42,392 bases of DNA from an uncultured Pseudomonadota bacterium. Lineage in GTDB: Bacteria; Myxococcota_A; UBA796; SXON01. The number at the start of each line of letters is the position of its first letter. Position 1 is the first letter of the stretch. The notes beneath the pieces are model-generated. The model was not told the DNA's origin. It saw nothing but the letters and a program-made list of their open reading frames with translations, and did not search any database. Location: contig CAIXRH010000335.1 in NCBI GenBank assembly GCA_903921785.1, positions 1-42,392 of the forward strand, read 5' to 3'. Position numbers and translations under genes: made by a program. Below, in pieces: positions 7,787-42,392 of this stretch.

Positions 7787-10700
7787 GGGCCGCTTGCGGC
7801 TCGCCGCCGCCGAACAAGGGCCAGTAGCCCCAGCAGTCCGCCCGTGCCCCCCGCGAGGCAGGCGGGTCCCCCGGAGGCCTCGGTCTCCGGCGAGCAAGGC
7901 TTCTCGGCGGTAGAGGTGCCCTCGTCGACGACCCCGTCGCAGTCGTCGTCGACGCCGTTGCAGGTCTCCGCGGCGGCAGGGGAGATGTCCGGGTCCCCGT
8001 CGCGACAGTCTCCGGGCGGGCCGAAGCCCGGGGGTCGGGAGCAGGAGACCTGGGTCAGTCCGTAGCCGTAGCCGTCCCCGTCGGCGTCGAGGTACCAGGC
8101 GATCGGCTCGATGGCGTCGGGATCCTCGCCGTCGAGGAGCCCGTCGCAGTCCTCATCGACGCCTCCGCAGCGCTCCTGGCCGGCAGGGCTCACGGTGGGA
8201 TCGGCGTCGTCACAGTCCGTGGCGGTGAGGCTCCGACCGGCCTCCGGATCGCAGGCGAGCACCGGGGCACCCCCCGGGTAGCCGTCGCCATCCGTGTCGT
8301 CGTACCAGGGGACCTCCGAGTCCGGCGCCAGAGACGGGTCGGCGCTCCCGCTCAGCCCGTTGCAGTTCTCGTCGAGACCCAGGGCATCGCAGACCTCACT
8401 GGCGCCGGGGTTGACCTCCCCGTTCCGGTCGTCGCAATCGCCGTCCTGCGGGGCGAACCCCGCAGCGCCGTCGCACGACCGCGTCGAGGCCGAGCCCGCC
8501 TCGCCCCATCCGTCTTGATCGGCGTCGGGGAACCACTCCAGGAACGACGAAGGGTCCACGCCGGGGTCGGCATCGTCGGCCAGGCCGCTGCAATCCTCGT
8601 CGACCCCTCCGTCGTCGCACACCTCGCGCGCCGCGGGGTTCACCCCGACGGCATCGTCGTCGCAATCGTCGAGCGTGAGCGAACCGCCCGGGGGGGGATC
8701 GCAGCGATGGGTGAGCGTGCCCGCGAAGCCGTCGCCGTCGGCGTCGCGGTAGAAGGGGCTCGCAGTGGTGACGTCGTAGCTCGGGTCGGCGTCGTCGCTC
8801 CGGCCGTCACAGTCCTCGTCCACGTCGGCGTCGTCGCAGAGCTCGGTGCCGTGGCGGTGGATCGCGGGGTTGGTGTCGTCGCAGTCATCGTCGGTGGCGA
8901 CGAGCCCCGCCGGCGCAACGCACGCCCAGGCCACGGGCGTGCCCGCGCCGCCGCCATCCCCGTCGAGATCCGGGTAGAACGGAGTGGTCCCGGTCACGTC
9001 GGGGTCGGCGTCGTCCACCAGCCCGTCGCAGTCCTCGTCCACGCCTGCGCCATCACACACCTCGGCCGCGAGCGGAGAGATCGCGGCGTCGTGCGGGGCG
9101 CAGTCCTCGCACGTCGGGACCCCGTCCCCGTCCGCGTCGTCCGCCGCGGCGAGGCCGTCGCAATCGTGGTCGACGGGGTCGGCGCAGTCGGTCTCCGCCG
9201 CGCCGGGGTGCGCGGCGGCGGAGGTGTCGTCGCAGTCGGTGGCGTCGGCGACGTAGCCCGCGGGCGGAGTGCAGGTGTCCACGGCGCTCGCCGCGTCGCC
9301 GTACCCGTCGCCGTCGAGGTCGGGCCCGTACAGGGTCCCGGACTCGTCCACGTCGCCGTCGCAGTCGTCGTCGGCACCGTTGCAGGTCTCGGTTCCGACC
9401 GGGGAGATCGTCGCATCGGTGTCGTCGCAGTCCTCGCTCGCGACGTAGCCGTCGGCGTCCGCGTCGGGATCCCCGGGCCACCAGTAGACGGCGCCAACCA
9501 GGGCTCCGGAGATGCTGGCGTCGTAGGGGGCGCCCAGGAGGACGTCGGGCAACCCGTCCGCGTCGACGTCGCCGACCGCAAGCGAGTGCAAGGCGCGGAT
9601 GTCCGCTTCGGCCGGGATCGTGAGGAGGACCTCGTCCGCCGCGAGGGTGCCGGTCGATCCGAACCACACCGAGACGACGCCGTGGTCCCCCGTCGTCGGA
9701 CCCAGCACCACCACGTCGTCACGCCCGTCGAGGTCCAGGTCGACGTTGGCGACCAGGGGGGCGCCGAACGAGCCCCGGTCCTCGGCCGCCGAGGACACGA
9801 GCTTCTCTTCGGCGCTCGTGACGATCCCGGCAGAGGAGCCCGGGTACAGGTAGACCGCACCCGCGCTCGACCGGTCCGTCACCGCGTTCGGCGCCCCCAC
9901 GGCCACGTCGCGGTACCCGTCGTCGTCGAGGTCACCCACGCCGACCGCTCGGCCGAGGTCGTCGCCGCTGAGCCCATCCGAGGCTTGAACCCGAACCTCG
10001 GCCGTGGGGTCCGCGCCCGAGGCGTCTCCCGGGTAGAGGTAGACGGCGCCCGGCCTGAGCTCCGGGCCCCCGGCCACCACGTCGTCGAGCCCGTCCCCGT
10101 CCACATCGCCCATCGCGACCGAGGTCCCCAGGTACGAGTCCTCTCCGCCGAGCGGAAGCAGCTCGGTGGCCGCGACCGGCTCGATCCCCGCTGCTCCCCC
10201 GAGGAACAGGTACACCGCCCCCGTGGACGCCAGGTGCGCGTGGGACCACGCTCCGATGGCGAGGTCGCTGTACCCGTCGCCGTTCACATCGCCGGAGGCG
10301 AGCGCGCTCCCGAACTCGGAGCCGCCCACCGCATCCGGTGAGACGAGCTGCTCCTCGCGGCTGGTGTCCACGCCGGTGGGGCTCCCGTAGTCGACGTAGG
10401 CGGCCCCGTCTCCGCCGCTGAGGCTGGTCTCTCGGGACGCTCCGGCCACCAGGTCGTCGTAGCCGTCACCATCCAGGTCGCCGGCTGCGGCGAGGGCGTG
10501 CCCATAGTAGCCAGGGGGGGCGTAGCCCGACGGGACGTAGTTCGTCTCGGCCCCCGCGACGGGCCCGTCGTCGTCGCACGGGAAGAGCCAGATCTGCTCA
10601 GAACCGCCGACAGCCAGCTCCACGCGGCCGTCGCGGTCGAGGTCCACGGTCGCCAGGTCCCGTCCCACCCCGTCTCCGCTATGCGGCACCGACTCCCCCA

Positions 10701-10869
10701 CCACCCGCTCGCCGCCGTCGTGGAGGTACGAGGCGCCGTGGGCAGGCGTCCCGCCCACGCGCTGGGCCGCCGCCGCGTCCAGCACGTCGCGGGTCCGTTC
10801 GCCGGACACGTCCGCTTCGCCCGAGTCCGGGTCCGCTGCGCAGCCGATGAGGAGGAGGGCAAGAAGCAA
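7735..10869 (-). CDS. Large surface lipoprotein: seven FG-GAP loops, eight MopE-type repeats and a MYXO-CTERM-like tail
   Basis: 1044 residues, TTG start. LLALLLIGC is a lipobox with Cys about residue 10. Residues ~65-490 carry seven FG-GAP Ca-binding loops (DLDGDGYDDLVAGA, DVNGDGYSDLAIGA, DVDGDGLDDVVAGG and others), likely an integrin-like propeller. Residues ~490-985 carry eight 50-65-residue units of the MopE/putative metal-binding type (DxDGDGY ... DCDD ... PGAxExCDGVDEDCDGLVDE). Near the end are Cys and a Gly/Leu helix followed by RRRR (ACLAGG ... ALVRRRR), a C-terminal sorting signal of the MYXO-CTERM kind. Oddly, 21 more residues follow the Arg cluster, encoded inside the convergent neighbour. 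A matrixin gene lies 84 bases upstream, read in the same direction. Confidence 0.9.
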   Translation of the reverse strand: MLLALLLIGCAADPDSGEADVSGERTRDVLDAAAAQRVGGTPAHGASYLHDGGERVVGESVPHSGDGVGRDLATVDLDRDGRVELAVGGSEQIWLFPCDDDGPVAGAETNYVPSGYAPPGYYGHALAAAGDLDGDGYDDLVAGASRETSLSGGDGAAYVDYGSPTGVDTSREEQLVSPDAVGGSEFGSALASGDVNGDGYSDLAIGAWSHAHLASTGAVYLFLGGAAGIEPVAATELLPLGGEDSYLGTSVAMGDVDGDGLDDVVAGGPELRPGAVYLYPGDASGADPTAEVRVQASDGLSGDDLGRAVGVGDLDDDGYRDVAVGAPNAVTDRSSAGAVYLYPGSSAGIVTSAEEKLVSSAAEDRGSFGAPLVANVDLDLDGRDDVVVLGPTTGDHGVVSVWFGSTGTLAADEVLLTIPAEADIRALHSLAVGDVDADGLPDVLLGAPYDASISGALVGAVYWWPGDPDADADGYVASEDCDDTDATISPVGTETCNGADDDCDGDVDESGTLYGPDLDGDGYGDAASAVDTCTPPAGYVADATDCDDTSAAAHPGAAETDCADPVDHDCDGLAAADDADGDGVPTCEDCAPHDAAISPLAAEVCDGAGVDEDCDGLVDDADPDVTGTTPFYPDLDGDGGGAGTPVAWACVAPAGLVATDDDCDDTNPAIHRHGTELCDDADVDEDCDGRSDDADPSYDVTTASPFYRDADGDGFAGTLTHRCDPPPGGSLTLDDCDDDAVGVNPAAREVCDDGGVDEDCSGLADDADPGVDPSSFLEWFPDADQDGWGEAGSASTRSCDGAAGFAPQDGDCDDRNGEVNPGASEVCDALGLDENCNGLSGSADPSLAPDSEVPWYDDTDGDGYPGGAPVLACDPEAGRSLTATDCDDADPTVSPAGQERCGGVDEDCDGLLDGEDPDAIEPIAWYLDADGDGYGYGLTQVSCSRPPGFGPPGDCRDGDPDISPAAAETCNGVDDDCDGVVDEGTSTAEKPCSPETEASGGPACLAGGTGGLLGLLALVRRRRAASGPHHFVGSSIGSGKPPTM

Positions 10870-20589: not shown

Positions 20590-23274
20590 TCAGCGGACGC
20601 GCCACCAGAGCGTCGAGCCCGCCGAGCTCATCGGGAGCGACCACCAGCCCGCGCCGTCCGCGGTCACCGGCACAGGCGCGCCCTCCACCCCCGCGGCGTC
20701 CATCGGGCGGACCTCGGGCTTTCGCGGCCACGCGAAGCGCACCGCGCCGCTGGGGCGGGTGAGGACCACCGCGTCGCCACCGTCTGCCAGGATCACCGAG
20801 CCGCCGCCGATGCGCTGCATCCCCCGGTTCTCCATGCGCCCGGCCACCGAGAGCAGGCCGCCCTTGCAGGCGCTCACCTCCCCGTCGAGGCAGGTGAGGC
20901 TCACCGCCGCCACGCCATCGAGCTGCGGGTCGAGGTGGGCCGCGCGAGTGGGGCCGGAGCCCTCCCCGGCGCCCGCCCGCTGCCGCAGCCCGTGGTCGCC
21001 GAGCACGGCCTCCAGGGCGGGCGTCTGCACCACGAAGCGCTCGGCGTCCGGCCACCAGCCGAGGGTGGTGCTCGGGGTCCCCGCGATGGGGAGCGGCGGC
21101 GCGTCGCCGTAGGCTTCCCGGTACCGCGCCCGCAGGAACGTCCCCACATCGCGGAGCTCGAGCAAATCGAGCTGCTGCTGCTCGACGATCTCCGCCTTCA
21201 CCGCCGCCGGAGAGCGCCAGATGGGCAGGAGCCCGTCCGCTGCGGGGACGGCGCCGCTGCGGAACAACCCCGACGCCGTGGCCATCTGCGCCCACTTCAC
21301 CGCGGCGAAGCGCATCTCGGAGAAGCTGGCCACCCCGTCCGGGCCCTCGGTGATCGGCCCGTTGGTGTAGTTGAGCCAGATCACCGCGTCCCAGTCCTGC
21401 TCCGAGGCCAACGACGCCCACAAAAGCGGCGCTTCGCTCATGTGGTCGTTGGGGAAGCCTTCGTTGAGCTCCGACACCATCATCGGCTTGCCCGCCTGCG
21501 CGATCGCGAAGCGCGAGATCATCTGCTGGCTGCGCGGGTTGGCGATGAACGACTCGTTGCGGAACGACCCGCTCGCGGACGCGTCCCACTCCAGGTGGGT
21601 GTCGATGACGTCGTAGCGGGCCATCGTCTGCGCCACCGCGGCGTTGGTGTAGGTGATTCCCCCCGTCAGCGGCTGGGTGTACCCGAGCCCCCGGACGGCG
21701 TCCCGGACCGCGTCGAAGAACGGGACCTCCAGGCCGAGGTAGAAGTCGTAGAGGTCGGCGACACGCGCGCGCGGGTACTGCCCGAACGAGCCCTGGCCGG
21801 CCGGGAGCCGCGCCACGTGACCCAACCCTTCGCCAGGGCGGAGGCCGGGGTTCACCGAGCCGGTCCACTTCGCCGCCATCGCGGCATCGTCCGGGTAGCG
21901 GGCGCGGAGGAAGTCGTTCCACTGGCGGTCGAGCTCGGCGCGGTGCACCGCCGGGAGGCGCTCGGTGCCGCCTGTCAGCCAGTTCATCACCAGGCTGTTC
22001 TCATTGGTCAGCTCCACCATCGCCACGCCGGGATCGTCGGCGTATCGTTTGCCGGTGTAGCGGTTGGTGCGCCCGAGCCACGCCTTGGTCCACTCCAGGT
22101 AGGCGGTGCGCCACGCCGGCTCGAACATGGGGAGCAGCTTGTGGCCGTTGGGAATCTCCGGCCCGGGGTCGTTCACCCCGTCGGCCGTGGTGAACGCGCG
22201 GTTGGTGGCGATCTCCAGCTCGATGTACACCCCCGCCGCCTCCAGCTTGGACACGAGGTAGTCGAAGCGGTCCAGCCCCTCGTCGAGGAACAGCGGGTCC
22301 GAGGCGGACTTCCGCGCCGGATTCAGCCCGCCCGAGGCGGGCGCGTCCGCGTGATGCATCCGGACCAGATTCACGCCGTTGGCCGCGAGCTGCACGGCGA
22401 GCGCGTCGGCGAGCTCGTGGGTGGGGTAGTTCGCCACGGTGAGCAGGTTCACGCCCCAGAAGCGGGCGCGGGTGCCGTCGGGCCACGCGAGGTGCCCGTC
22501 CTTCACGGCGAGCTTGCCCCGGGAGCCGGCGTTGGGCGGCACGGCCCAGGCCGAGGGCACGGGCGCGCCGGGGGAGTGGATCGTGATCGGGAACGGGAAG
22601 CCGTCGAGGCCGTGGCGCGTGGCCATCGGCAGCTCCACCACCCGGCCGGGGTGCGCGCCGAGCAGCACCACGTCGGGCTCGGTGACGCGCACATCGAGGG
22701 TGACGGCGTCCGTCGGCTCCACGTAGACCACGGAGAGCACCCGACCGTTCCCGGCATCCACCGCGGCGTAGCGGTCGGCCGCGACGCCGCCGGTCAGCGA
22801 CGACAGCCCCTCGCCGGCGCGCAGGTCCTCGATCACGGCGGGCCCGCCGGTGGGGGTGCGGGTCACCCGGAGGATCGGGGCGCCGCGGGGCAGGTCGCCG
22901 CGGTAGGCGAGGAGCAGGCTCACGCCGCGCGACGCCACCTCCGGACCGCCGCCCAGCTCGAGCCGTCGCGGCGCTTTGGGATGCGCGGGGCCGCGGAAAG
23001 CGAACGCGTCAAGCCCGGCGTCGGGCGCCGCGAGCGTCGGCACGGCGGCCTGCACCTTGGCCCACCCCGCCGCGTCCAGCCACGCGTCGGGGCCGGCGCC
23101 GACGATGTCGACGTTGGGCTTCCAGGTGAGCGTGGCCGGCGGCACCTCGGCGGCGGCCTCGCCTTCGGCCGGCTTGGGGTGCGGCGGCGGGCGGGTACGG
23201 GGCGCGGCGGCAGCGGTGACGGCGAGGGCGGCCGCGACCGCGGCGGCGAGGGCGAAGCGGAACGACGTGCGCAC
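20590..23274 (-). CDS. Secreted TIM-barrel glycoside hydrolase (clan GH-A type)
   Basis: 894 residues from a GTG at 23274, which starts right at a signal peptide (MRTSFRFALAAAVAAALAV); further upstream the frame is shadow. After a Pro-rich linker comes a beta-sandwich (about 60-270), then the barrel: RFWGVNLLTVANYPTHELADALAVQLAANGVNLVRMHH, a clan A opening, then GVAMVELTNENSL with acid/base Glu in the NEN motif, and PMMVSELNEGFPND with the likely nucleophile Glu at the end of strand 7. A C-terminal beta domain closes the protein. This is the plan of GH5/GH39/GH-A relatives acting on polysaccharide; the exact family and substrate are not clear. A small lipoprotein gene lies 59 bases upstream in the same direction, probably in one operon. 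Confidence 0.8.
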   Translation of the reverse strand: MRTSFRFALAAAVAAALAVTAAAAPRTRPPPHPKPAEGEAAAEVPPATLTWKPNVDIVGAGPDAWLDAAGWAKVQAAVPTLAAPDAGLDAFAFRGPAHPKAPRRLELGGGPEVASRGVSLLLAYRGDLPRGAPILRVTRTPTGGPAVIEDLRAGEGLSSLTGGVAADRYAAVDAGNGRVLSVVYVEPTDAVTLDVRVTEPDVVLLGAHPGRVVELPMATRHGLDGFPFPITIHSPGAPVPSAWAVPPNAGSRGKLAVKDGHLAWPDGTRARFWGVNLLTVANYPTHELADALAVQLAANGVNLVRMHHADAPASGGLNPARKSASDPLFLDEGLDRFDYLVSKLEAAGVYIELEIATNRAFTTADGVNDPGPEIPNGHKLLPMFEPAWRTAYLEWTKAWLGRTNRYTGKRYADDPGVAMVELTNENSLVMNWLTGGTERLPAVHRAELDRQWNDFLRARYPDDAAMAAKWTGSVNPGLRPGEGLGHVARLPAGQGSFGQYPRARVADLYDFYLGLEVPFFDAVRDAVRGLGYTQPLTGGITYTNAAVAQTMARYDVIDTHLEWDASASGSFRNESFIANPRSQQMISRFAIAQAGKPMMVSELNEGFPNDHMSEAPLLWASLASEQDWDAVIWLNYTNGPITEGPDGVASFSEMRFAAVKWAQMATASGLFRSGAVPAADGLLPIWRSPAAVKAEIVEQQQLDLLELRDVGTFLRARYREAYGDAPPLPIAGTPSTTLGWWPDAERFVVQTPALEAVLGDHGLRQRAGAGEGSGPTRAAHLDPQLDGVAAVSLTCLDGEVSACKGGLLSVAGRMENRGMQRIGGGSVILADGGDAVVLTRPSGAVRFAWPRKPEVRPMDAAGVEGAPVPVTADGAGWWSLPMSSAGSTLWWRVR

Positions 23275-25561: not shown

Positions 25562-26284
25562 ATGCCCGCCCCCACCCTCGTCCTCCTCCCCGGCCTCGAC
25601 GGCACCGGCGACCTGTTCGCCCCCTTCGTCGCGCAGCTCCGTGGCATCGAGACCGTCGTCGTCCGCTACCCGGGCGACCGCTACCTCGACGTCGCCGCCC
25701 AAGCGGAGCGCGCTGTCGCGACCCTGAACGGCCGTTCGGACCTCATCCTGCTCGGCGAGTCCTACTCCGGGCGCGTGGCCATCGAAGTGTCGCGACGCAT
25801 TCCAAACGCGATCCGCGGGTTCGTCTTCACCGCGTCCTTCCTAAGCAACCCCGCGCCGTTGCCCGCGTGGACCGCGGCCACTCTCGCCGACGCCCTGTTC
25901 CGCCTCCCGCTGCCCGACGCGGCCGTCCGCGCCATGCTCGCCGGGGGCGACGCGCCGGACACGCTCGTGCACGAGGTGCAAGCCGCCGTCCGCTCGGTGG
26001 CGCCGGAGGTCTTCGCCGCACGCGTACGCGACGTCCTCCGCAGCACCCCGCCCGACCCCCGCGGCGTCCCGCGCGTGCCCACGCTCTACCTCGCCGGCCG
26101 CGCCGACCGTCTGGTCGCGACGCGCAGCGTGCAGGACTTCCGCGACCTCGGGCTGGACGTGGAGGTGGCCACGCTCGACGCGCCGCACCTCTTGCTCCAA
26201 CGGGCTCCCGAAGCAACCGGGGAGCGCCTCGCGGCGTTCCTGGCGGCGCTTCCGGCTGACCCTCAGTTCCCGAGCACCATATAG
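25562..26284 (+). CDS. Alpha/beta hydrolase
   Basis: 240 residues. The alpha/beta fold is intact: LVLLPGLDGTGDLF (oxyanion-hole loop with PGLDG, 10-14), the nucleophile elbow LLGESYSG (Ser67), acid residue in LYLAGRADRLV (about 180) and catalytic His in DAPHLLLQRAPE (about 215). No signal peptide, so cytoplasmic. This compact lidded type occurs among esterases and thioesterase-like or 2-hydroxy acid/lactone hydrolases; substrate unknown. TACCCT ends 6 bases before the ATG. Its last 22 bases overlap the 3' end of the convergent FG-GAP gene, so its last residues (PQFPSTI) are encoded in the overlap. Confidence 0.85.
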   Translation: MPAPTLVLLPGLDGTGDLFAPFVAQLRGIETVVVRYPGDRYLDVAAQAERAVATLNGRSDLILLGESYSGRVAIEVSRRIPNAIRGFVFTASFLSNPAPLPAWTAATLADALFRLPLPDAAVRAMLAGGDAPDTLVHEVQAAVRSVAPEVFAARVRDVLRSTPPDPRGVPRVPTLYLAGRADRLVATRSVQDFRDLGLDVEVATLDAPHLLLQRAPEATGERLAAFLAALPADPQFPSTI

Positions 26285-28935
26285 ACCGCACCGGTCGCGC
26301 CCACGCCGCCGCCGCCGACCCCCGCTTGGGGCGCCGCGACCACCATGTCCGCCGCGCTGTCGCCGTCGAAGTCGCCGATGCCGAGCACGGCGCCGAAGAG
26401 ATCGCCGGAGGTCTCGCCGAGGAGGCCGCGGAAGGCCTCGGTGGAGGTGTGGGTGCCGGCGACGCCGAGCACGTCGCGATCCAGGGCGTAGACCGCGCCG
26501 ATGTCCGTGCCCACGGCGTACCACCAGTAGTAGGGGTAGGCGGCGTAGGTGTTGGAGAGCGCCGGTGCGCCCACCAGCAGGTCGGTGCGACCGTCCGAGT
26601 CCACGTCCGAAGCGAGGAGGCTGCTGCCGAAGTTGTTGCTGCCGGTGATCGTGCTGTCCGCGTCGGCGCTCTCGAGCTCGCTGCCGAGGGAGCCGGCGTC
26701 CCAGAAGACGGACACGGCGTCGGCGGTGGTGCTGCCGACCGCGAGGTCGAGCTTGCCGGAGCCGTCGAAGTTGCCGATCACCAGGGCGCCGCCGAAGTGG
26801 TCGTCCTTCGTCGAGCCGTAGAGCACCGAGGTGGCGGCGTCGTCCACGTCGACCTCGCCGCTGAGATCGTCCGCGTTCACCACGTAGACCGCGCCACCGG
26901 CGCTGGCGGCGCCAGTGACCCCGGGAGCGCCGAGCGCCACGTCGTCGTAGCCGTCGCCGTCCAGGTCGCCCGCATCGATCGCGGCGCCGAGGTAGCCCAT
27001 GTTCGACACGCCGTTGAGACGGGCCAGGTAGCTGTCCTTGTCGATCGCGCCGCCGGACGACAGGTCGTAGAGCGCCGCGGAGCCGGCGTAGGTCTTCGAG
27101 CCGTTGGTGACGATCATGTTGCCGAGGAGCACCTCGTTCACGCCGTCGCCGTCGGTGTCGATCTCGGTGACCAGCCGCATGCCGCCGTAGCTGTACGTCG
27201 CGTCGCCTTCGACGCCGATGGAGGCGTCGCCGGTGTCGAGGATGCCGCTGAGGCTGCTGCCGCCGGAGAAGACGCTGATGCTGTCGCCGCCGACCATCGC
27301 CGAGTACGGGGAGGCCGCCGCGGCGAGGTCCACCGTGCCGTCGCCGTCGTAGTCCACGAAGTGGCGGGGGAGCTCGCCGAAGTAGCTGTAGGTGTCGCCG
27401 TTGATCGTGGCCGTGTCGAGCGAGGAGACCACGCCGGTGGCGCCGATCACGTCCGCCGAGTCGAGGAGCCACACCGTGCCCGCGTACCCGGAGGACCAGC
27501 CCGCGCCGATCGCGAGGTCGTCCACGCCGTCGCCCGTGACGTCGCCCGTGCCGATGCCGGCCGCGGCGCCGAGGTAGGTCGCGCCGCTGCCGACGATCTT
27601 CGCGGAGTACACGTCGTCGACCGTGGGGTCGTCCACCACCCCGTCGCAGTCGTTGTCGACGCCGTCCCAGGTGTCGGCGGCGTCGGCGTAGACGGCGGCG
27701 TCGGTGTCGTCACAGTCGCCGCTGGCTTCGGAGTAGCCGTCGCCGTCTTCGTCCACCGTGGTGCACTGGTCGTTGGGGTCGGCCGGGGTGCCCTTGTCGG
27801 TGGCGCTGATGTGGCTGGAGGCGTCGCACCACCACGCCGTGTCGAGCGCGTCGTCCTTGTTGAGGTGATCGGGATCGAGCTCCCGGGCGACGCCGGCGGT
27901 GGCGTCCGTCCAGGAGATGGTGGCGATGGTGCGCCCGTCGACCAGCAGGGTGAGGCCGTCGCTGGAGTTCATCGAGAAGGTGGTGGGGTCGTAGGCGTAG
28001 TCGACGTGGACGTTGCCGTTGGTCACCGCGTCGGCGTTGGCGCCGACCACCGCGCGGCCCTGGCCGATGATGTCGGTGTGGCGGGAGACGACGAAGCTGT
28101 CGCCGCGGCTGTTGCGCACCTCCCACCCGTAGAGGTCGATACGGCCGGTGCCGAGGTTCGCGACCTCGAACCATTCGCCCTTGGCGTCGGCCACGGCGCC
28201 CGGCGTGGCCATGACCTCGGAGACGACCACCTCGCCCGCGAGCACGAAGTCTTCGTCGACCATGCCGTCGCAGTCCTGGTCCACCTCGTCGAGCGCTTCG
28301 TCGGCGCCGGGGTGCACCGCGCCGTTGGTGTCGTCGCAATCGTTGCCGCCGTAGGCGAGCGCCGGCCAGCCGTCGGCGTCCTGGTCGTAGTCGTTGCCGC
28401 CATCGCAGTCTTCGTCGACCCCGTTGTACCAGACCTCGTTCGCGCCCGGGTGCACCTTGGCGTCGGTGTCGTCGCAATCGTCGCCGCCGGCGCCGAGGTT
28501 GGCGAAGCCGTCGCCGTCCGCGTCGGTGGTGACGACGCCCTCGAGGCTCACGAAGGCCTGCGGGGTGGTCGGATCGTTGCTGTCCAGCTCCAAGGCGCCG
28601 TAGTGGGACGACGCATCGGGCGCGAGGAAGGTGACGGTGAGGGTGACCGACTCCCCCGGGGCCACGCGCTGCTCGCCGGCCGGAGAGACCACGAAGGCCG
28701 TGTCGGTGATCGTGCTGGTGAAGACCAGCGCGTCCTCACCGGTGGTGCACGTATTGCCGACGCTCACCTCGCCGGTGACCTCCGTGCCGGGCTCCACCCC
28801 ATCCCAATGGAGGAGCTCGGGGTCCACCGAGATGACCTGACAGCCCACCGGCGCCTCGCCGGTTTCACCCTGCGAGTCCGTGGTGTCCGTGTTCGTGGCG
28901 CACGCGGCGAGCGAGAGCAGGAGGAGAAGGCGCAT
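26263..28935 (-). CDS. Large lipoprotein: Ig-like domain, MopE motifs, lamin-tail domain and FG-GAP propeller
   Basis: 890 residues. MRLLLLLSLAAC is a lipobox (Cys12). Domain order: an ASPM/HYDIN-like sandwich (about 35-135, LLHWDGVEPGTEVTGEVSVGN ... GALELDSNDPTTPQAFVSL), two MopE-type units (GDDCDDTDAKVHPGANEVW; GNDCDDTNGAVHPGADEAL), a lamin-tail domain (about 235-370, VVVSEVMATPG ... GEWFEVANLGTGRIDLYGWEV), one more MopE unit (GDCDDTDAAVYADAADTWDGVDNDCDG), then at least seven FG-GAP loops (DVTGDGVDDLAIGA, DYDGDGTVDLAAAA, DTDGDGVNEVLLG, DLDGDGYDDVALGAPG, DVDSDGRTDLLVGAP and others). It probably sits on the outer surface and binds Ca2+. Ends convergently with the hydrolase gene, overlapping by 22 bases. 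Confidence 0.9.
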   Translation of the reverse strand: MRLLLLLSLAACATNTDTTDSQGETGEAPVGCQVISVDPELLHWDGVEPGTEVTGEVSVGNTCTTGEDALVFTSTITDTAFVVSPAGEQRVAPGESVTLTVTFLAPDASSHYGALELDSNDPTTPQAFVSLEGVVTTDADGDGFANLGAGGDDCDDTDAKVHPGANEVWYNGVDEDCDGGNDYDQDADGWPALAYGGNDCDDTNGAVHPGADEALDEVDQDCDGMVDEDFVLAGEVVVSEVMATPGAVADAKGEWFEVANLGTGRIDLYGWEVRNSRGDSFVVSRHTDIIGQGRAVVGANADAVTNGNVHVDYAYDPTTFSMNSSDGLTLLVDGRTIATISWTDATAGVARELDPDHLNKDDALDTAWWCDASSHISATDKGTPADPNDQCTTVDEDGDGYSEASGDCDDTDAAVYADAADTWDGVDNDCDGVVDDPTVDDVYSAKIVGSGATYLGAAAGIGTGDVTGDGVDDLAIGAGWSSGYAGTVWLLDSADVIGATGVVSSLDTATINGDTYSYFGELPRHFVDYDGDGTVDLAAAASPYSAMVGGDSISVFSGGSSLSGILDTGDASIGVEGDATYSYGGMRLVTEIDTDGDGVNEVLLGNMIVTNGSKTYAGSAALYDLSSGGAIDKDSYLARLNGVSNMGYLGAAIDAGDLDGDGYDDVALGAPGVTGAASAGGAVYVVNADDLSGEVDVDDAATSVLYGSTKDDHFGGALVIGNFDGSGKLDLAVGSTTADAVSVFWDAGSLGSELESADADSTITGSNNFGSSLLASDVDSDGRTDLLVGAPALSNTYAAYPYYWWYAVGTDIGAVYALDRDVLGVAGTHTSTEAFRGLLGETSGDLFGAVLGIGDFDGDSAADMVVAAPQAGVGGGGVGATGAVYMVLGN

Positions 28936-34522: not shown

Positions 34523-34933
34523 CGGTGCCCCGCGACCCGCGCCGACCGGCGCGGGCAAATCCACCCGGCTCGCGATTCTCGCCGGCGCGGCGCCGACGGC
34601 CGGTCACGTGAGGCTCGATCCGCCGGACGCCCGGGTGGCTCGCTGCGTCGAGGATCGCACGCTCGACGTCACCACCCTGGACGCGCTCCCCGCGGGAGAG
34701 GGCGAGCTCGGCCCGCGAGTGGTCCTCCGCCTCCTCCACCGGTTGGGCCAGACCGAGCGGATGCGCGATCCCCTGCGCGACGTGAGTCCCGGCGAAGGCC
34801 AGCGTTGGCAGCGGGGCCGACGGGACGATCCGGGCCTGGCCCGGCACGCTGGCGCTCGTGAGCCACGACGACACGTTCGCCGCCGCGCTCACCGACGGAA
34901 CCTGGGCGGTCGCGCCCGAGGCTAGGGCTTGAT
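34523..34933 (+). pseudogene. Decayed ABC ATPase (ABC-F type) fragment
   Basis: The plus strand first reads PTGAGKSTRLAILAGAAPTAGHV (frame of 34533), a Walker A with its following helix. It continues to DVSPGEGQRW, the ABC signature (usual LSGGEQQR), at about 34780-34810. A second piece in another frame reads LALVSHDDTFAAALTDGTW (about 34850-34905), the H-loop end of an ABC-F ATPase, and ends at the TGA 34931-34933. The Walker B strand (LLLDEPT) is missing between the signature and the H-loop, and the frame shifts there. With no start and an internal deletion this is a dead gene. It overlaps the 3' end of clpP, convergent. Confidence 0.55.
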
Positions 34934-35515
34934 GAACCGCGGCTGGATGATCTCGTCCACGATGCCGTAGGCCACGGCCTCGTCGGCGGTCATGATGTAG
35001 TCGCGATCGGTGTCCTTGAGGATGCGCTCGAACGGCTGCCCGGTGTGGTGCACCAGGATGTCGTTGAGCTCCTTCCGCATCCGACCGATCTCCTTGGCCT
35101 GGATCTCGATGTCGGAGGCCTGCCCACGCGCGCCGCCGAGCGGCTGGTGGATGAGCACGCGGGCGTGCGGCAGGATGCGCCGCTTGCCCTTGGTGCCGGA
35201 CGCGAGGAGGACCGCGCCCATGGACGCGGCCTGCCCGAGGCAGATGGTGTTCACCGGGGCGCGCACGTGTTGCATGGTGTCGTAGATCGCCATGCCGTCG
35301 GTGATGCTGCCCCCCGGGCTGTTGATGTAGAGGAAGATGTCGCGCTCGGGGTCCTGGGAGTCCAGGAACAGGAGCTGGGCGACGATGAGGTTCGCCACCC
35401 GATCATCGACCGCTTCGCCCAGGAAGACGATGCGGTCGTTGAGCAGACGACTGTAGATGTCCGAGACGCTCTCCCCGCGGTGGGTGGATTCCTTCACGTA
35501 GGGGATGAACGGCAT
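34922..35515 (-). CDS. clpP: ATP-dependent Clp protease proteolytic subunit
   Basis: 197 residues. The triad is complete at standard positions: Ser98 in [12 protein letters not shown], His123 in VLIHQPLGG, Asp172 in KDTDRDYIM. Also typical are [14 protein letters not shown], the oxyanion loop [18 protein letters not shown] and the handle helix. The product forms the barrel protease that works with ClpX/ClpA in the cytoplasm. It follows tig by 3 bases and is surely cotranscribed. No clpX follows: the downstream sequence is the ABC ATPase remnant on the other strand. Confidence 0.97.
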
Positions 35516-35518
35516 GGA

Positions 35519-37000
35519 CTACTCCTCGGTCTTCTTCTTGGTCGACTTCTTCTTGGGCTTATCCTCGGCCGCGGCGGCCGGCGCGGCCTCTGCGGTTTCG
35601 GTAGCCGGAGCGGCCTCAGCGGCGGGCTCGGCCGCGGCCTTCTTCGACGCCTTCTTCTTCGGCTTCTCCTCCACCGCGGGCTCCGCGGCGGGGGCCGGCG
35701 CGGCCTCGGCGGCCGGAGCCGCTTCGGGGCCGGCGTCGTTCTCGCTCACGTAATCGAGGTCGGAGCGCTCAAGGACCCAGTCGAGCGTACGCTCTTCGAG
35801 GAGGTGCTTCTTGAGCTCGGCCACGCCGCCTTCCTTGGCGATGTAGCCGCGGATGGCCTCCACGCGCTGGCCGCGCTGGTCGGCGATCTCCTGGTACTTA
35901 CGCTCCAGGTCGTCGTTGGTGATGGCGATGCCTTCCTTGGCCGCCACGGCGTCGAGGATCAGGCCGGCCTTGGCCGCGAACTCGGCGCGCACGCGGAGGT
36001 CGGCGATCTGGGCTTCGGAGTAGCGGATCGAGCGCGGATCGCGGCCGCGGTACGCCGCCTGCACACCCAGCTCCTCGATGAGCAGCTTGAGGTTCTTCTC
36101 GGTGAGCGCCGCCGGCACGGTGACCTCGTGCCCCTTCACCAGCTCCTGGAGGAGGTGGATGCGGGCCTGGTTCCGGGCGTTCTCGTTGGCGCTGGTCTCG
36201 ATCTCCATGCGGATGGCGGCGCGCATGGCGTCGGCCCCGCCCTCGAACCCGGCGGCGGCGGCGGCCGCATCGTCGATGTCCGGGACCTTCTGGATCTGGA
36301 TGCCGAGCACCTTCACGGAGGCGATGAGCACGCGGCCGCGGTTGGCGGCGATGGCGCTGGACTCGCCGAGGGTGACCTCACCCGACTTGCTCTCCCCCAC
36401 GGCGAGGCCGAAGAGCAGCTCCTCGATGCCGGGGTAGTAGCGCTCGGCGCCGGTGTTCACCATGGTGCCGGCTTCGATGACGTTGCCGCCGTCGGAGATC
36501 TCGGCGAGCACGAAGTCGCCCGCCTGCACGGTGCGGCCGGCGTCGGCGTCCACGAGGCGAGCCTGGCCCTGGAGGCGGCGGCGCACTTCGAGGTCGACCT
36601 GATCGTCGGAGACCTGGACCAGCGGGTAGCGGATCTTCAGGCCGAGGTACGCGGTGAGCTCGACTTCGGGGCGCACCTGCACGGTGATCGCGAAGCTGAA
36701 GTCGCCCGCGCCGATCTCACCCGCCTCTTCGACGGAGGGCTGGCCCAGGAACTCCATGCCGGCAGACGCCGACTGGAACTTCATGTTCATCAGCTCGCCC
36801 GCGACTTCGGAGCGGAGCTGCTTGCCGTAGCGGTCCTCAAGCACCTTGCGGGGCACCTTGCCGGGGCGGAACCCGGGGATGCGGACGCGGTTCCCGAGGT
36901 TGCGGAACGCGGCGTCCAGCTTCTGGGAGACCTCCGCGCCGGGGACGGTGAAGCGCAGCCGCTTCTGGATGGGGGAGACCTGCTCGATCGCGAAGGACAT
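35519..37000 (-). CDS. tig: Trigger factor chaperone
   Basis: 493 residues, longer than the usual 430-450. The N-terminal ribosome-binding domain carries GFRPGKVPRKVLEDRYG (about 43-60). The central FKBP-like region has AGDFVLAEISDGGNVIEAGT ... PGIEELLFGLAVGESK. The C-terminal helical domain runs ITNDDLERKYQEIADQRGQRVEAIRGYI. An added tail of about 65 residues is Ala/Pro/Lys/Glu-rich (ending KPKKKSTKKKTEE), typical of high-GC delta-like genomes. It folds nascent chains at the ribosome. The ATG lies only 22 bases after the 3' end of the tRNA-Leu gene, and clpP follows 3 bases later. Confidence 0.96.
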   Translation of the reverse strand: MSFAIEQVSPIQKRLRFTVPGAEVSQKLDAAFRNLGNRVRIPGFRPGKVPRKVLEDRYGKQLRSEVAGELMNMKFQSASAGMEFLGQPSVEEAGEIGAGDFSFAITVQVRPEVELTAYLGLKIRYPLVQVSDDQVDLEVRRRLQGQARLVDADAGRTVQAGDFVLAEISDGGNVIEAGTMVNTGAERYYPGIEELLFGLAVGESKSGEVTLGESSAIAANRGRVLIASVKVLGIQIQKVPDIDDAAAAAAGFEGGADAMRAAIRMEIETSANENARNQARIHLLQELVKGHEVTVPAALTEKNLKLLIEELGVQAAYRGRDPRSIRYSEAQIADLRVRAEFAAKAGLILDAVAAKEGIAITNDDLERKYQEIADQRGQRVEAIRGYIAKEGGVAELKKHLLEERTLDWVLERSDLDYVSENDAGPEAAPAAEAAPAPAAEPAVEEKPKKKASKKAAAEPAAEAAPATETAEAAPAAAAEDKPKKKSTKKKTEE

Positions 37001-37357: not shown

Positions 37358-37386
37358 CTTCTAATGCCCGAATGGAGAGTCGGCAA
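37358..37386 (-). promoter_or_regulatory. Likely sigma-70-type promoter of the tRNA/tig/clpP unit
   Basis: On the minus strand TTGCCG (37381-37386) and TAGAAG (37358-37363) are 17 bases apart and match TTGACA/TATAAT at 4 of 6 positions each. The -10 ends 12 bases before the tRNA-His 5' end, the right distance for a start a few bases ahead of it. The region overlaps the last codons of the YD-repeat gene and is distinctly less GC-rich than its surroundings. Confidence 0.5.
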
Positions 37387-40300
37387 GGGCCGAGCCGCCC
37401 AATGCTGGTGAAGGTACGCTGAATCCGGGGGTATCGACACGATCATTGTCCAGCTCAGACGAGATGAATGCGAATATGATCGTACCGCTGTCCATCGGGC
37501 TCGCCCGCAGCGCCGCGGACACCACCAGCTGCCCCGCGACGTCCTCGTCGAGCGGCGCGCCCCCGAGCCCCGCGAACGGCGCGGGCACCGTGCGGGCGAA
37601 CGACGCCGGGAGCCAGGGCAGGCCGGGCGCCTCCTCCGGCTCGGGCGCCCCGCCGGGAAGCACGCCGGCCTCCACGAGCCGCGCGGCGCCGTCCGCCCAG
37701 CCGACCGGCGGGTCGAACGCGGCGGCGTCCCAGAAGGCGTCGGTGGCGCCATCCGGGGCGCGGAAGGGCGAAGGGGCCGGGGAGAGCTCCATGTCTTTCG
37801 GCGTCCAGGGCCAGCGATCAGGGGCGGTGGTCTGGCCGCTGAGCGGGTCGACGGCGCGGAGGAGGTCGACGAGGATGCCGCCGGGCAGGGCGTAGCGCCC
37901 GCCGGGGCCCGCTTCGGCGGCGTCGACGCCGCGGAGCCACCCGCCCGGCCAGGGCCGGAGCGCGCCGACCCACGGGACCATCAGCGGGTAGCCCCGTGGA
38001 TCGAAGAGGACGGCGCTGCCAGGGCGTCCCACCGCCTCGGGCGACATCGGGGCCCGGGAGGCGTCACCGACGCCGAGGAGCGCGTCCCAGCCCACGAGAA
38101 CGTCGGTGCCGACCCGGCGGAGCCGGCCGAACGCATCCCGGAGCAGCGGCACGGCGCGCTCGCCGAGCGTCAGCACCGCGGGTCGGCCCAGCCCGTCGTG
38201 CACGAGCACCGCGCCGCTGGTCTCGCCGTCGATCCCGCCGAGGGTCCCCCCCTCCGTCCAGCGGTAGCTCGCGGCGCCCGCCTCGAGCCCCCACGGTCCG
38301 GCCGCGCTGAGCGTGGCGGCGGTCGGCCGATCGGCCTGGTCGAGCGTGATCGCGCTCCCGTCGGGGAGCGAGAGGCGGCCGGCGTCGCGACGCCATTCGC
38401 CGTCAGGGCCCAGCAACCCCACGAGCAGGCCACGAGGGTCGCGTTCCAAGCGCACCGCGCCGCCGGCCGCGAGCGTCAGCAGGCGTCCTGCGTCGTCGAG
38501 GGTCCAGGAGGCATCACCCGTCGGCCGCCCGTCTCGGTCGGTCGCGAGGAGCTCCCCCGCGTCGCCGCTGACGTTTCGGCGCACCAGCGTGCCGTCCGAC
38601 AGCCGGAGCAGGCTGAGCCCGCCGTCCGGCTCGTAGTCGGCCCCGGTCACGCCCACGCCCGGCACTTCGACCCGCACCACGCGTCCCAGCCCGTCGCGAC
38701 CCACGGCCCAGGTGCGGTCCGCGGTGACCCGGCTGATCCGGCCCCGGAGGTCGCGAGAGAGGTTGGTGATCCCGAGCTCGTCGGTGATCCGACTGACGAG
38801 GCCGGCGCCATCGCGCAAGAGCGACGCGGTGCGCCCGTCGGCGGTGGTGACGCTGCTGACCCGTCCGGCGGCGTCCCGCTCGATCCGCCAGCGTTCACCG
38901 CCCTCATCGCCCGCGCGCACGTCGCTGACGCGCCCCGCGGCGTCGCGGGTGATGGCGAACGCGATGTCGCCCATGCCGAAGCCGGTGACCCGGCCGCGGT
39001 CGTCGCGGGACCAGCCGGCGAGCGCGCCGGCCGCGTCCCGCACTTCGAGGACGCGTCCCGCGGCGTCGCGGGCGAGCCGCCAGGCGCCGACGCTCCGCAC
39101 GCGACCCAGCGTGTCGCGACCGATGGTGAAGCTGCTCCCGTCCGGACTCCGTACGGTCGCGACGCGCCCCGCGCTGTCGCGAGTGAAGGACGTCAGCGCC
39201 CCCGCAGGGTCACGCACCCCGGCCAATCGCCCCGCGCTGTCGCGAAGCCAGCTCCACCGCACCGCGCCGTGGGTGAGCTGCGCGAGCCTCCCCTCGCTCC
39301 GGACGAGCGAGACGCGCTGCCCGTCCGGGCGGGTGAGCGAAACGAGGTGCCCCGAAGCGTCCACCCGCAGCTCCCAGCGGGTCCCGGCCGGGTCGACGAT
39401 GGCGGTAGGAACGCTCGCGGCCGTACGCTCGACCTGCCAGGTCCCGCCAACCGCATCGAGGACCCGGACCACCTCCCCCGCCGCATCGCGCTCCAGGCGC
39501 ACCTCGCTGTGGCTCCCCACCTGCAAGGACACGGGGCGGCCGTTGCCATCCCGGAGCACGCGGGCGGACTCGCCGCCGCGCGTCCACACCCGCACCCCGC
39601 CGTCGGTGAGCTCGCGCCGGACCGACCGGCCGTCTGGCTCGGTGCGGGTCTGCACGCCGTCCCCCGTCGTCGCGAGGCGCCACACCCCCTGGGCGGCGTC
39701 GCGCAGCTCGACCATCTCCGCGCCGGACCAGCGGAAGTTCGCCACCGTGGCGCCGCCCTGCACCAGCGCTTCGGGTCGACCGTCCTGCCCCCACCGGAGC
39801 TGAGCACGGGCGCCGTCCGCGTCTTCCCAGCCGGTGATCCGCCCACCGAGGCTGTCCAGCCGCATCCGGGCGCCCGCCGGGTCCGTGGTGGTCGTGGCGT
39901 TCCCGTCGCGAACGACGGTCCACCGCCGCCCGGCCCCGTCGTCCACGGCCGTGCTCGTCCCCGTACGGTCACACTTCCACCGGCCGCCCAGCCCCGAGGT
40001 GCCGTCCGCCTCCACCCGGAGGCGACCCCCATCGGGCCACTTCACCCCCCGCAACCCCGCGCCGTCGTACTCGTACTGGACGCGCCCCAGGGGCCCTTCA
40101 ACCGCGTCGATCCGGGTGCCGCTGTAGGTGTAGGTGACCCGCCGGCCGCCGTCGCTGGTGGCCCCCTCGGGGTCGAGCTCGACCGACGCTCGACCCGAGC
40201 GCATCCCCCGGAACCGTCCGTCGTCCCCCCGCAGGACCTCCACCCGTCGCCCCGCCGAGACCCGCGCGACAACTCGCCCCTGGCTGTCGGTCTCCAGCGC

Positions 40301-40612
40301 CTCTGGCCACGCCGCCTGAGGGATCGAACGTAGTCCAGGCCGAAGCAGCAGCCCGTCCCTCACCACCCAATCATCCGCCCAGCTCCACGCCTTCCCGTCC
40401 CAGACGCGCGCCGCCCGGACGTCGTGCGCGTAGGCCCCTGCGTCCAGGTCGACGACGGCGAGGTGGACCGCGCACGTGTCGACGTCCAACTCCACCGAGC
40501 CGTGCGCCGGGTCGCCGACGACGGGACCCAGCCAGCTCCACCCAGCGGGCGTGGCCACCGGATCGACGCCGTGCAGCGCGCGGGCAGCGAGGAAGACGAA
40601 AGGACCGATCAG
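37361..40612 (-). CDS. YD-repeat (Rhs-like) surface protein
   Basis: 1083 residues if it starts at the CTG at 40612, whose TGA overlaps the upstream stop (CTGA). That start gives the only signal-peptide-like N-terminus (LIGPFVFLAARALHG). The GTG at 40558 gives 1065 residues without one. More than twenty YD-type repeats run from about 95 to 790 (RDAAGRV, RDSAGRL, RDTLGRV, DGLGRV, TYTYSGTRIDAVEGPLGRVQYEYD), the beta-shell of Rhs/teneurin proteins. The usual core end (DPLGL... GRFLSPDP) is diverged: DPRGYPLMVPWVG ... VDPLSGQTTAPDRWPW. The last ~100 residues are a unique tip with no recognised toxin fold. It is the second gene of a unit with the CHAT-like protein upstream. Confidence 0.82.
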   Translation of the reverse strand: MIGPFVFLAARALHGVDPVATPAGWSWLGPVVGDPAHGSVELDVDTCAVHLAVVDLDAGAYAHDVRAARVWDGKAWSWADDWVVRDGLLLRPGLRSIPQAAWPEALETDSQGRVVARVSAGRRVEVLRGDDGRFRGMRSGRASVELDPEGATSDGGRRVTYTYSGTRIDAVEGPLGRVQYEYDGAGLRGVKWPDGGRLRVEADGTSGLGGRWKCDRTGTSTAVDDGAGRRWTVVRDGNATTTTDPAGARMRLDSLGGRITGWEDADGARAQLRWGQDGRPEALVQGGATVANFRWSGAEMVELRDAAQGVWRLATTGDGVQTRTEPDGRSVRRELTDGGVRVWTRGGESARVLRDGNGRPVSLQVGSHSEVRLERDAAGEVVRVLDAVGGTWQVERTAASVPTAIVDPAGTRWELRVDASGHLVSLTRPDGQRVSLVRSEGRLAQLTHGAVRWSWLRDSAGRLAGVRDPAGALTSFTRDSAGRVATVRSPDGSSFTIGRDTLGRVRSVGAWRLARDAAGRVLEVRDAAGALAGWSRDDRGRVTGFGMGDIAFAITRDAAGRVSDVRAGDEGGERWRIERDAAGRVSSVTTADGRTASLLRDGAGLVSRITDELGITNLSRDLRGRISRVTADRTWAVGRDGLGRVVRVEVPGVGVTGADYEPDGGLSLLRLSDGTLVRRNVSGDAGELLATDRDGRPTGDASWTLDDAGRLLTLAAGGAVRLERDPRGLLVGLLGPDGEWRRDAGRLSLPDGSAITLDQADRPTAATLSAAGPWGLEAGAASYRWTEGGTLGGIDGETSGAVLVHDGLGRPAVLTLGERAVPLLRDAFGRLRRVGTDVLVGWDALLGVGDASRAPMSPEAVGRPGSAVLFDPRGYPLMVPWVGALRPWPGGWLRGVDAAEAGPGGRYALPGGILVDLLRAVDPLSGQTTAPDRWPWTPKDMELSPAPSPFRAPDGATDAFWDAAAFDPPVGWADGAARLVEAGVLPGGAPEPEEAPGLPWLPASFARTVPAPFAGLGGAPLDEDVAGQLVVSAALRASPMDSGTIIFAFISSELDNDRVDTPGFSVPSPALGGSALADSPFGH

Positions 40613-42392
40613 GGCTTCCCAGCGATCATGTAACGGACCCAGTTGGTCGGCCGATTGCCCAGGTCGAACTCCTTCATGGTCGCGGCCCGCGACTCATAGA
40701 AGGAGCGCGTGGCGGTGTACCGACGGTTCACCCCCTCCCAGAAATGGGTGACGGCGCGCTCGTGGAACGTCGGGTTGGCCCCGGGTGCGCCGACGAGGAA
40801 GTCCTTCACCCCGGCCCGACGGACTGCGGCGAGGCGACGCTGCGCCCCGACCGGGTCCGCACCGCCACCGATGTACGCGGCGCGCGCGCTCAACGGCATC
40901 GACGCCACCTCGGCGACCGAGAGCTCCCCGTCCGCGAGCTGCCATCCGCCCGTCGGGCCGGTGGGGAAGTCGCCGATGTGGAGGAACCGGGCGGCACCGG
41001 CGTTCGTCTTGAACGAGGCCACCGTGGCCGTGGGCCCCTCGAGCACCATGGCACCCGGGTAGAGCCGCTTGATCATGTCGGACTCCACCGGCGTGGCGCA
41101 GAGCGCGACCAGCGTCTGCTGGTAGTCTTCGAGCACCGGCGGGGTCGCCTCGATGATCGACGCGAAGTCCGGGTAGTAGACGACGGATCGGATGTCGGCG
41201 AGGTAGCGGAGCCCGTCGGACTGCTCGGGGAGGGCGTTGATGGCGAACGATCCGTACGGCGGCGGCCCGACCACATAGAACTTGCCGATGCCCGCGAGGG
41301 TCTCCTCGGCCGAGTCGAGGATCGCGCTGCGGAGCCGATCGCCCTGCGCGACGGCGGCGTCGCCGGCGATCACCGCCTTGGTCCAGGTGACCATCGCATC
41401 GCCGGTCTGGGGCTTGACGCGCACCAACTTCCCGCCGTTCGCCGTCAGGTAGAGCACCTCGACCATTCCGGGAAGCGGGCGGAAGGAGAGCACCGCCGAG
41501 CCGTCGAGGCCGGTGCGCAGCGCCGACACGTCCACCGACGGGGCGGGGACGAGGCCCGCCGCCTTCTCGGCCGACACCAGCGCGTCCCGAGGCGCCGTCG
41601 GCCACGGGCCCTTGCCGGCCAGCCAGGCCAACTCGGCCACGCGGTACGCGGCCGCGGCATCCCACACCGCGGCGGACAGCTCCGCTCTGGTGCCGGGCGG
41701 CAGCGGCGCGACCCCGCCATGCCACATCATGGTGGTGGTGGCGCGGGCCTGGGCCCAGCCGTGCAGCGCCACCGCCGGGGTGACGGCGTCGGCCGCCGCG
41801 CGGACCTTCTCGGCGTCCGCGCCCATCTGGTCAGGCCGCGGCCCGTCCAACACGAGCACCGGCGCCCACGGGCCCGTGCGCCACGCAGGGACCGCCTCGG
41901 CGAGCGCTTCGTACTCATGCGCGGCGGTGACGACGTCCGCCGCCGCCAGCGCCATGCGTGCCCGTGCCCACGGCGCGACACCGCCGCCGGGCGCCCCCGC
42001 CTCCGCGCCGATGACGGCGTTCCAGGCGGCGGTCTCGGGATGGTCCCCGGTGAGCGCGGCACCCTTGCCCGTCGCCAACCACGCGCGGGCGCCAGACTCT
42101 TCGGCCCACGCCGCCCCCTCACCCGCAGGCAACGCGCCGGGCCCGGCCCAGGCGGCGGCCCAGGTGTGGAGGTCTGCGGCTGGAGACGCCGCGGCGACGC
42201 GGAGCGCCTCACTGGGATCGTCGAGCCAGCCGGCAGAGAGCATCGCGACCAGCGCGGCGTCGTCCCCGGTGAGGCCGCTGCCCGGCAGCTTCTGGGCGCC
42301 GCGGAGGGTGGCGGCCAGCTCGCGGGCGGCGGTGGCCTCCGGCTCGGCGAGGCCGGCGGCAGCGGCAGTGACGCCCGGCGCGTCGCCCAGCG
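40609..42392 (-). CDS. CHAT-like protein with lost catalytic dyad (5' end beyond the window)
   Basis: The frame is open to the window edge; 593 codons are visible and the N-terminus is missing. The first ~270 visible residues are Ala/Trp-rich and helical, as in the TPR-like helices that precede CHAT domains. The last ~300 follow the CHAT caspase-like order: a strand-rich start (SALRTGLDGSAVLSFRPLPGMVEVLYL), the loop YGSFAINALPEQSDGLRYLADIRSVVYYPDF (as LPFxALP...YLxE...V.YxPS), RFLHIGDFPTGPTGGWQLADGELSVAEVASMPLSARAAYIGGGAD. In active CHAT proteases the last part has HxxTHG and LSACxT; here both the His and Cys positions are changed. Likely a pseudoprotease or binding domain. Its stop overlaps the probable start of the YD-repeat gene. 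Confidence 0.6.
   Translation of the reverse strand, partial: LGDAPGVTAAAAGLAEPEATAARELAATLRGAQKLPGSGLTGDDAALVAMLSAGWLDDPSEALRVAAASPAADLHTWAAAWAGPGALPAGEGAAWAEESGARAWLATGKGAALTGDHPETAAWNAVIGAEAGAPGGGVAPWARARMALAAADVVTAAHEYEALAEAVPAWRTGPWAPVLVLDGPRPDQMGADAEKVRAAADAVTPAVALHGWAQARATTTMMWHGGVAPLPPGTRAELSAAVWDAAAAYRVAELAWLAGKGPWPTAPRDALVSAEKAAGLVPAPSVDVSALRTGLDGSAVLSFRPLPGMVEVLYLTANGGKLVRVKPQTGDAMVTWTKAVIAGDAAVAQGDRLRSAILDSAEETLAGIGKFYVVGPPPYGSFAINALPEQSDGLRYLADIRSVVYYPDFASIIEATPPVLEDYQQTLVALCATPVESDMIKRLYPGAMVLEGPTATVASFKTNAGAARFLHIGDFPTGPTGGWQLADGELSVAEVASMPLSARAAYIGGGADPVGAQRRLAAVRRAGVKDFLVGAPGANPTFHERAVTHFWEGVNRRYTATRSFYESRAATMKEFDLGNRPTNWVRYMIAGKP

What the first reader, a model, noticed from the sequence alone, without database searches (positions are those of the whole stretch)
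40609..42392. CHAT-like pseudoprotease translationally coupled to a YD-repeat surface protein
The right-edge gene has the layout of a CHAT (caspase-like) domain after a helical region, including the HIGDF...LADGELSVAEVASMPL...YIGG block. The catalytic His (HxxTHG) and Cys (LSACxT) positions are replaced. Its stop TGA overlaps a CTG that would give the next gene, a YD-repeat shell protein, a signal peptide. A caspase-like relative without catalysis, paired with a secreted Rhs-like shell, is not an arrangement I recognise. CHAT plus TPR proteins and Rhs proteins are each known separately in toxin or defence settings; that they act together is inference from the CTGA overlap.
Basis: partly seen in the sequence, partly recalled or inferred. 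Interest (0 to 1): 0.65.

Follow-up and report, generated by a model that had tools for sequence, protein, structure and literature searches.

The report
Dead caspase-like lipoprotein beside Rhs-like shell
An uncultivated order of Myxococcota-type bacteria carries, in most genomes, a protease-shaped lipoprotein that has lost its catalytic residues, encoded next to a secreted Rhs-like shell protein without a toxin and behind a dead membrane kinase, so three weapon-like folds seem to have become an envelope sensing or scaffolding module.

Summary
The right-edge gene is the 3' part (593 aa) of a ~940-aa lipoprotein: TPR solenoid plus CHAT (caspase/separase-like) domain. The rest lies on another contig of the genome. 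Profile comparison, Pfam hits in orthologues and a confident AlphaFold model (pLDDT 90) agree on CHAT. No orthologue aligned keeps the catalytic His and Cys, yet the domain is under purifying selection. The YD gene follows it in 33 of 34 genomes where this can be read; the CTGA overlap is kept in 7 of 8 genus loci examined (the eighth has its own ATG).

Corrections: the partner is a complete Rhs-type shell with a signal peptide but without a polymorphic toxin tip; only 1 of 29 relatives has a T6SS sheath gene. The unit is usually three genes, led by a transmembrane pseudokinase, between an RpoH-like sigma gene and tig-clpP. It was found in one order only and looks vertically inherited. The pair is not obligatory: one genus lacks the CHAT gene, one genome the YD gene, and one family both. 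Most likely a non-catalytic envelope scaffold or sensor, not a protease or toxin; that it binds the YD shell is inference.

The parts
40609..42390 (-). 3' part (593 codons) of the TPR/pseudo-CHAT lipoprotein gene, cut by the contig end; missing 5' part is L078:13197-14183 (+) on contig C94
41512..42390 (-). part of the TPR-like helical solenoid
   Evidence: AlphaFold model of the 65%-identical orthologue L035, mapped; TPR hits in orthologues
40612..41511 (-). CHAT (caspase/separase-like) domain without catalytic residues
40966..40968 (-). codon of Phe475, aligned with the catalytic His of canonical CHAT
40861..40863 (-). codon of Gly510, aligned with the catalytic Cys of canonical CHAT
41188..41232 (-). 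family-specific conserved motif LPEQxxGxRxLADIR
40609..40612 (-). CTGA overlap: stop of the CHAT gene and likely CTG start of the YD gene
37361..40612 (-). secreted YD-repeat (Rhs-type shell) protein, about 1080 aa, no variable toxin tip
35519..37000 (-). trigger factor (tig), constant downstream neighbour
   Evidence: name from sequence and constant synteny
34922..35515 (-). clpP, constant downstream neighbour
   Evidence: name from sequence and constant synteny

Best explanation
The gene encodes an exported lipoprotein made of a TPR solenoid and a dead caspase-like (CHAT) domain, kept as a binding module rather than an enzyme. It works in an envelope module with the co-transcribed secreted YD-shell protein and the transmembrane pseudokinase encoded just upstream. 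Shown by sequence and models: fold, loss of the catalytic residues, lipoprotein and secretion leaders, purifying selection, conserved gene order. Inferred: the solenoid and the former protease pocket hold a protein ligand, most simply the YD shell, at the envelope, and the pseudokinase's periplasmic tail reports the state of that complex to the cytoplasm.
For: Lipobox-like leaders in most full-length orthologues and in the own genome's 5' part. CHAT by profile and by fold: VIA Z 21.7 to Craspase TPR-CHAT, Z 20.6 (rmsd 3.6 over 285) to separase 5fby, Z 17.4 to the transmembrane anti-sigma factor DdvA. No catalytic pair in 27 orthologues, whereas neighbouring CHAT proteins of the class keep HFATHG or HLATHA/LSAC. 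omega of the dead CHAT domain 0.03-0.12 in close pairs, at or below trigger factor. YD gene directly downstream in 33 of 34 genomes, with recurrent stop/start overlap. Pseudokinase upstream with VAIK, HRD and DFG motifs lost, a TM segment and a conserved Cys-containing periplasmic tail.
Against: Genus g13 keeps pseudokinase and YD gene without the CHAT gene in G047, and G014 keeps the CHAT gene without the YD gene, so neither strictly needs the other. No direct evidence of binding; no complex was modelled. Stable synteny can persist without functional contact.
Confidence: 0.55

Rival explanations
1. Envelope sensor independent of the YD protein: the TPR/pseudo-CHAT lipoprotein acts with the pseudokinase (and possibly the divergently encoded sigma factor) as a signal receptor, like the periplasmic part of the anti-sigma factor DdvA; the YD gene is only a co-regulated neighbour or output.
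For: DdvA is among the best structural matches (Z 17.4); the pseudokinase stands without the YD or CHAT gene in G032 and G044 and is a constant of the site; sigma factor gene next door.
Against: In g13 the pseudokinase is kept with the YD gene while the CHAT gene is gone (G047); the CHAT-YD overlap is recurrent. Sequence similarity to DdvA was not found.
Confidence: 0.22
2. Neighbours by inheritance: the two proteins have unrelated envelope roles and stay adjacent because the core locus is rarely rearranged.
For: The whole block up to tig-clpP-clpX-lon is syntenic; each gene is lost without the other at least once.
Against: Stop/start overlaps recur in three families with different start codons (CTG, GTG, near ATG), and adjacency persists down to about 27% identity.
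Confidence: 0.15
3. Toxin or defence pair: an Rhs toxin with a CHAT executioner or immunity partner.
For: Both folds are known from such systems.
Against: No variable C-terminal tip, no immunity-like gene downstream, no T6SS sheath gene in the genus, no PADLOC match for the CHAT or YD proteins, single-copy core location, no plasmid match.
Confidence: 0.05
4. Still a protease that uses other residues.
For: The fold is intact.
Against: No conserved Cys in the CHAT domain; several orthologues have no Cys there at all.
Confidence: 0.03

Closest known systems
Csx29 / TPR-CHAT protease of Craspase (type III-E CRISPR; PMC9729208, PMC10028731, PMC9935389)
   Same: TPR solenoid followed by a C-terminal CHAT domain; best fold match (VIA Z 21.7)
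   Different: Craspase TPR-CHAT is a working intracellular protease bound to Cas7-11; here the catalytic residues are gone, the protein has a lipoprotein leader, and there is no CRISPR context
Separase (5fby and others)
   Same: Caspase-like domain superposes at rmsd 3.6 over 285 residues, Z 20.6, after a helical repeat region
   Different: Eukaryotic and catalytically active; no lipoprotein leader
DdvA, transmembrane anti-sigma factor (PDB 8rot, 8rw5)
   Same: Fold match over residues 154-928 of the model, Z 17.4; by the PDB title a membrane regulator. That it is from Myxococcus xanthus is from memory
   Different: DdvA is itself the anti-sigma factor in the membrane; here the protein is a separate lipoprotein and the membrane partner is a pseudokinase. 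DdvA's sequence and catalytic residues could not be compared here
Rhs cores of T6SS effectors (8uxt, 8qja, 8qjc, 7q97), TcC, teneurins and bacterial teneurin-like proteins (PMC13018210)
   Same: The YD protein folds as one full shell, VIA Z 20.8 over 878 residues to 8uxt
   Different: Sec-type leader of its own, no polymorphic C-terminal toxin, NCBIfam finds YD repeats only, no T6SS sheath gene in the genus

Membership tests
CHAT domain (PF12770) | Match to the profile above the gathering score | tested here: inconclusive
   Window protein itself: no hit. Orthologues L053, L054, L050 pass the cut-off of 24 bits with 52.4, 50.6 and 44.9 bits; profile-profile probability 99.3%
CHAT domain (PF12770) | Caspase/separase-like alpha/beta fold | tested here: met
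   AlphaFold pLDDT 90; separase Z 20.6, TPR-CHAT Z 21.7, on the 65%-identical full-length orthologue
CHAT domain (PF12770) | Catalytic His and Cys | tested here: not met
   Phe475 and Gly510 in the window protein; no catalytic pair in any of 27 orthologues
Bacterial lipoprotein | Short hydrophobic leader ending in a lipobox Cys | tested here: met
   Own genome MLPLLYTLLVVGC; similar leaders in most full-length orthologues. By eye and pattern, no predictor was run
Rhs polymorphic toxin / T6SS Rhs effector | YD-repeat shell | tested here: met
Rhs polymorphic toxin / T6SS Rhs effector | Rhs-associated core motif followed by a polymorphic C-terminal toxin | tested here: not met
   NCBIfam over 22 members finds YD_repeat_2x, a partial RHS_core match far under its cut-off, and no Rhs-associated core model; residues 830-1030 are as conserved as the shell or more so, only the last ~50 residues vary
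Rhs polymorphic toxin / T6SS Rhs effector | T6SS in the genome | tested here: not met
   VipB profile in 1 of 29 relatives, none in the genus; draft genomes
Craspase (type III-E CRISPR TPR-CHAT) | Active protease next to Cas7-11 | tested here: not met
   Catalytic residues absent; no CRISPR genes in the syntenic block by the gene listings

The most novel reading that the evidence does not exclude
A trans-envelope signalling system built wholly from disarmed folds: a toxin-less secreted Rhs shell as external or periplasmic ligand, a dead caspase-like lipoprotein as its receptor, and a dead transmembrane kinase as the relay to the cytoplasm, placed beside an RpoH-like sigma factor and the tig-clpP-clpX-lon proteostasis genes.
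Probability: 0.2. Interest if true: 0.75.

Novelty: new variant of a known kind. Interest (0 to 1): 0.52.

Why it matters
CHAT proteins are studied as proteases in immunity and cell death, and Rhs shells as toxin carriers. Here, within one bacterial order, both have been kept under purifying selection as a core, single-copy envelope locus after losing catalysis and toxin, together with a pseudokinase. It would be a natural case of weapon folds turned into housekeeping, and a test of what a pseudo-caspase pocket can bind. No paper pairing CHAT domains with YD repeats was found in the library searched; the library is partial.

Tried and rejected
Sequence search of the PDB with the C-terminal and full-length profiles found no CHAT relative; the fold search did. 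Ribosomal frameshifting into the YD frame: no slippery heptamer at GGG AAG CCC TGA and other genera have separate ATG starts, so reinitiation is preferred. Anti-phage defence: no PADLOC hit for the CHAT or YD proteins; the pseudokinase hits PD-T4-6 models, read here as generic kinase similarity. Phage origin: no PHROGs hit. Plasmid spread: no match. Tree of tig plus ClpP to tell gain from loss in family f3: the base of the order stayed unresolved, so f3 may have lost the pair or never had it. Papers on DdvA: none in the library.

Full report
What was checked. The finding is a gene at the right edge of the window, 40609-42390 on the minus strand. The window is a whole contig, G000:C335, of a 362-contig draft genome, so the gene is cut by the assembly. 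A profile of its orthologues finds the missing 5' part at the end of contig C94. There (L078:13197-14183, +) it starts MLPLLYTLLVVGC, a lipobox-like leader, followed by TPR-like repeats. About a dozen codons are missing between the contigs.

Is it CHAT? The window protein alone has no Pfam or NCBIfam match. Six of 21 orthologues do hit Pfam CHAT, best E 2.9e-16, and L053, L054 and L050 pass the curated cut-off. A profile of 27 C-terminal parts matches a profile of canonical CHAT proteins at 99.3% probability, E 1.2e-20. An AlphaFold model of the full-length orthologue L035 (65% identical to the window) has mean pLDDT 90 and pTM 0.88: low-confidence leader 1-31, helical solenoid to about 630, alpha/beta domain to 930. 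Against the PDB its best matches are TPR-CHAT of Craspase (VIA Z 21.7), separase (5fby Z 20.6, rmsd 3.6 over 285 residues) and the anti-sigma factor DdvA (Z 17.4). The caspase-like fold is therefore well supported; it rests on models and profiles, not on a solved structure.

Is it dead? In the profile alignment the catalytic His falls on Phe475 and the catalytic Cys on Gly510. None of the 27 orthologues has the two residues, and several have no Cys in the domain at all. Other CHAT proteins of the same class, L085 and L086, keep HFATHG or HLATHA and, in L086, LSAC, so the loss belongs to this orthologue group. The dead domain is not decaying: dN/dS is 0.033 (L035/L036) and 0.119 (L051/L088) for the CHAT part, against 0.065 and 0.214 for trigger factor in the same pairs.

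The partner. The YD gene (37361 to about 40612) follows directly. Its frame has no ATG, GTG or TTG before a hydrophobic leader; only the CTG that overlaps the stop (CTGA) would include it. That CTG and the leader are kept in 7 of 8 genus loci examined, and in L083 and L091; L053 has GTGA. L040, L041, L049 and L051 have their own ATG, followed by a leader. The window's own leader is weak (an Arg and a His inside), those of L083, L091 and L053 are convincing by eye. A CTG start by termination-reinitiation is the likely reading, not proven. The AlphaFold model of the window protein (pLDDT 88, pTM 0.86) is one closed-looking YD shell, matching Rhs cores of T6SS effectors (Foldseek 3e-43; VIA Z 20.8 over 878 residues), teneurins and TcC. 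It lacks the toxin side: residues 830-1030 are as conserved as the shell, only the last ~50 vary, NCBIfam finds YD repeats and no Rhs-associated core, and only one of 29 relatives has a T6SS sheath gene, none in the genus.

The neighbourhood. With an own gene caller on 20 relatives' loci, the order is: heparinase-like and RpoH-like sigma genes and an inositol-monophosphatase-like gene on one side; then, in the opposite direction, a large membrane protein, the CHAT gene, the YD gene, tig, clpP and often clpX and lon. The large membrane protein is a pseudokinase: the VAIK lysine is Arg, HRDLKPEN reads HPGPTPGEV, DFG is lost (Pfam Pkinase E 1e-3, under its cut-off). It has one transmembrane stretch and a conserved tail ending CFAGGxRxCR, placed in the periplasm by topology inference.

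Distribution. The CHAT gene was found in most members of five families of one order and, at E up to 1e-12, in no other of 284 genomes drawn from the phylum except one weak match that is a canonical CHAT protein. Counting by hand, 34 genomes have the 3' end of the CHAT gene with room to read on: 33 have the YD gene next, one (G014) has not (L046). Genus g13 lacks the CHAT gene and keeps the YD gene, in G047 directly behind the pseudokinase. Family f3 lacks both; G032 and G044 keep the pseudokinase alone before tig, G042 has none of the three. The tig/ClpP tree shows the g13 and G014 cases nested among carriers, hence losses, but cannot place f3. Records of related contigs are named Deltaproteobacteria, Myxococcota or Myxococcales MAGs; the order has no name here.

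Interpretation. Established: a TPR/pseudo-CHAT lipoprotein and an exported Rhs-type shell, neighbours over deep divergence, in a core locus. Inferred: that they form one module and that the pseudokinase belongs to it. I rate a shared envelope role, with the lipoprotein as a non-catalytic binder of the YD shell or of its assembly state, as most likely (0.55 for the whole statement; the direct binding alone nearer 0.35). An independent DdvA-like sensor is the main rival. Dead effector domains are known from conflict systems, where inactive caspase domains are common (PMC7159879), but nothing here points to conflict: single copy, vertical, no variable region beyond the last ~50 residues of the YD protein, no defence hit.

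Novelty. Each fold is known. Bacterial teneurin-like proteins with lipoprotein leaders in Myxococcota are known too (PMC13018210), but those carry toxins and further domains. The combination and its fixation as a core locus in one order is, to my knowledge and in the library searched, not described. I call it a new variant of a known kind.

Noticed in passing
L078:10764-13130 (+), contig C94 of the window's genome: Transmembrane pseudokinase upstream of the CHAT gene: VAIK, HRD and DFG motifs lost, one TM stretch, tail ending CFAGGxRxCR. It stands alone before tig in G032 and G044.
   Followed up: partly
L078:8839-9867 (-) and orthologues: RpoH-like sigma factor gene next to the module, opposite the tig-clpP-clpX-lon cluster; a regulatory link is possible but untested.
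   Followed up: no
L046 (G014) and L129 (G047): Natural single losses: CHAT gene without YD gene, and YD gene without CHAT gene.
   Followed up: yes
L041:7175-7855, L046:3315-3971, L090, L091: A small lipoprotein-like gene lies between the YD gene and tig in genera g5 and g6; distant homologues sit before tig in L131 and L135.
   Followed up: no
L001, L086:4883-7471, L143:3094-5727: Other TPR-CHAT proteins of the own genome and the class keep the catalytic motif; some look exported.
   Followed up: partly
L105, L106: MAG records titled Klebsiella pneumoniae and Bifidobacterium breve carry this locus: almost certainly misnamed records.
   Followed up: no
window 7735-10869 (-), 20590-23274 (-), 26263-28935 (-): Further large genes whose products begin with secretion-type or lipoprotein-type leaders; not examined.
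   Followed up: no
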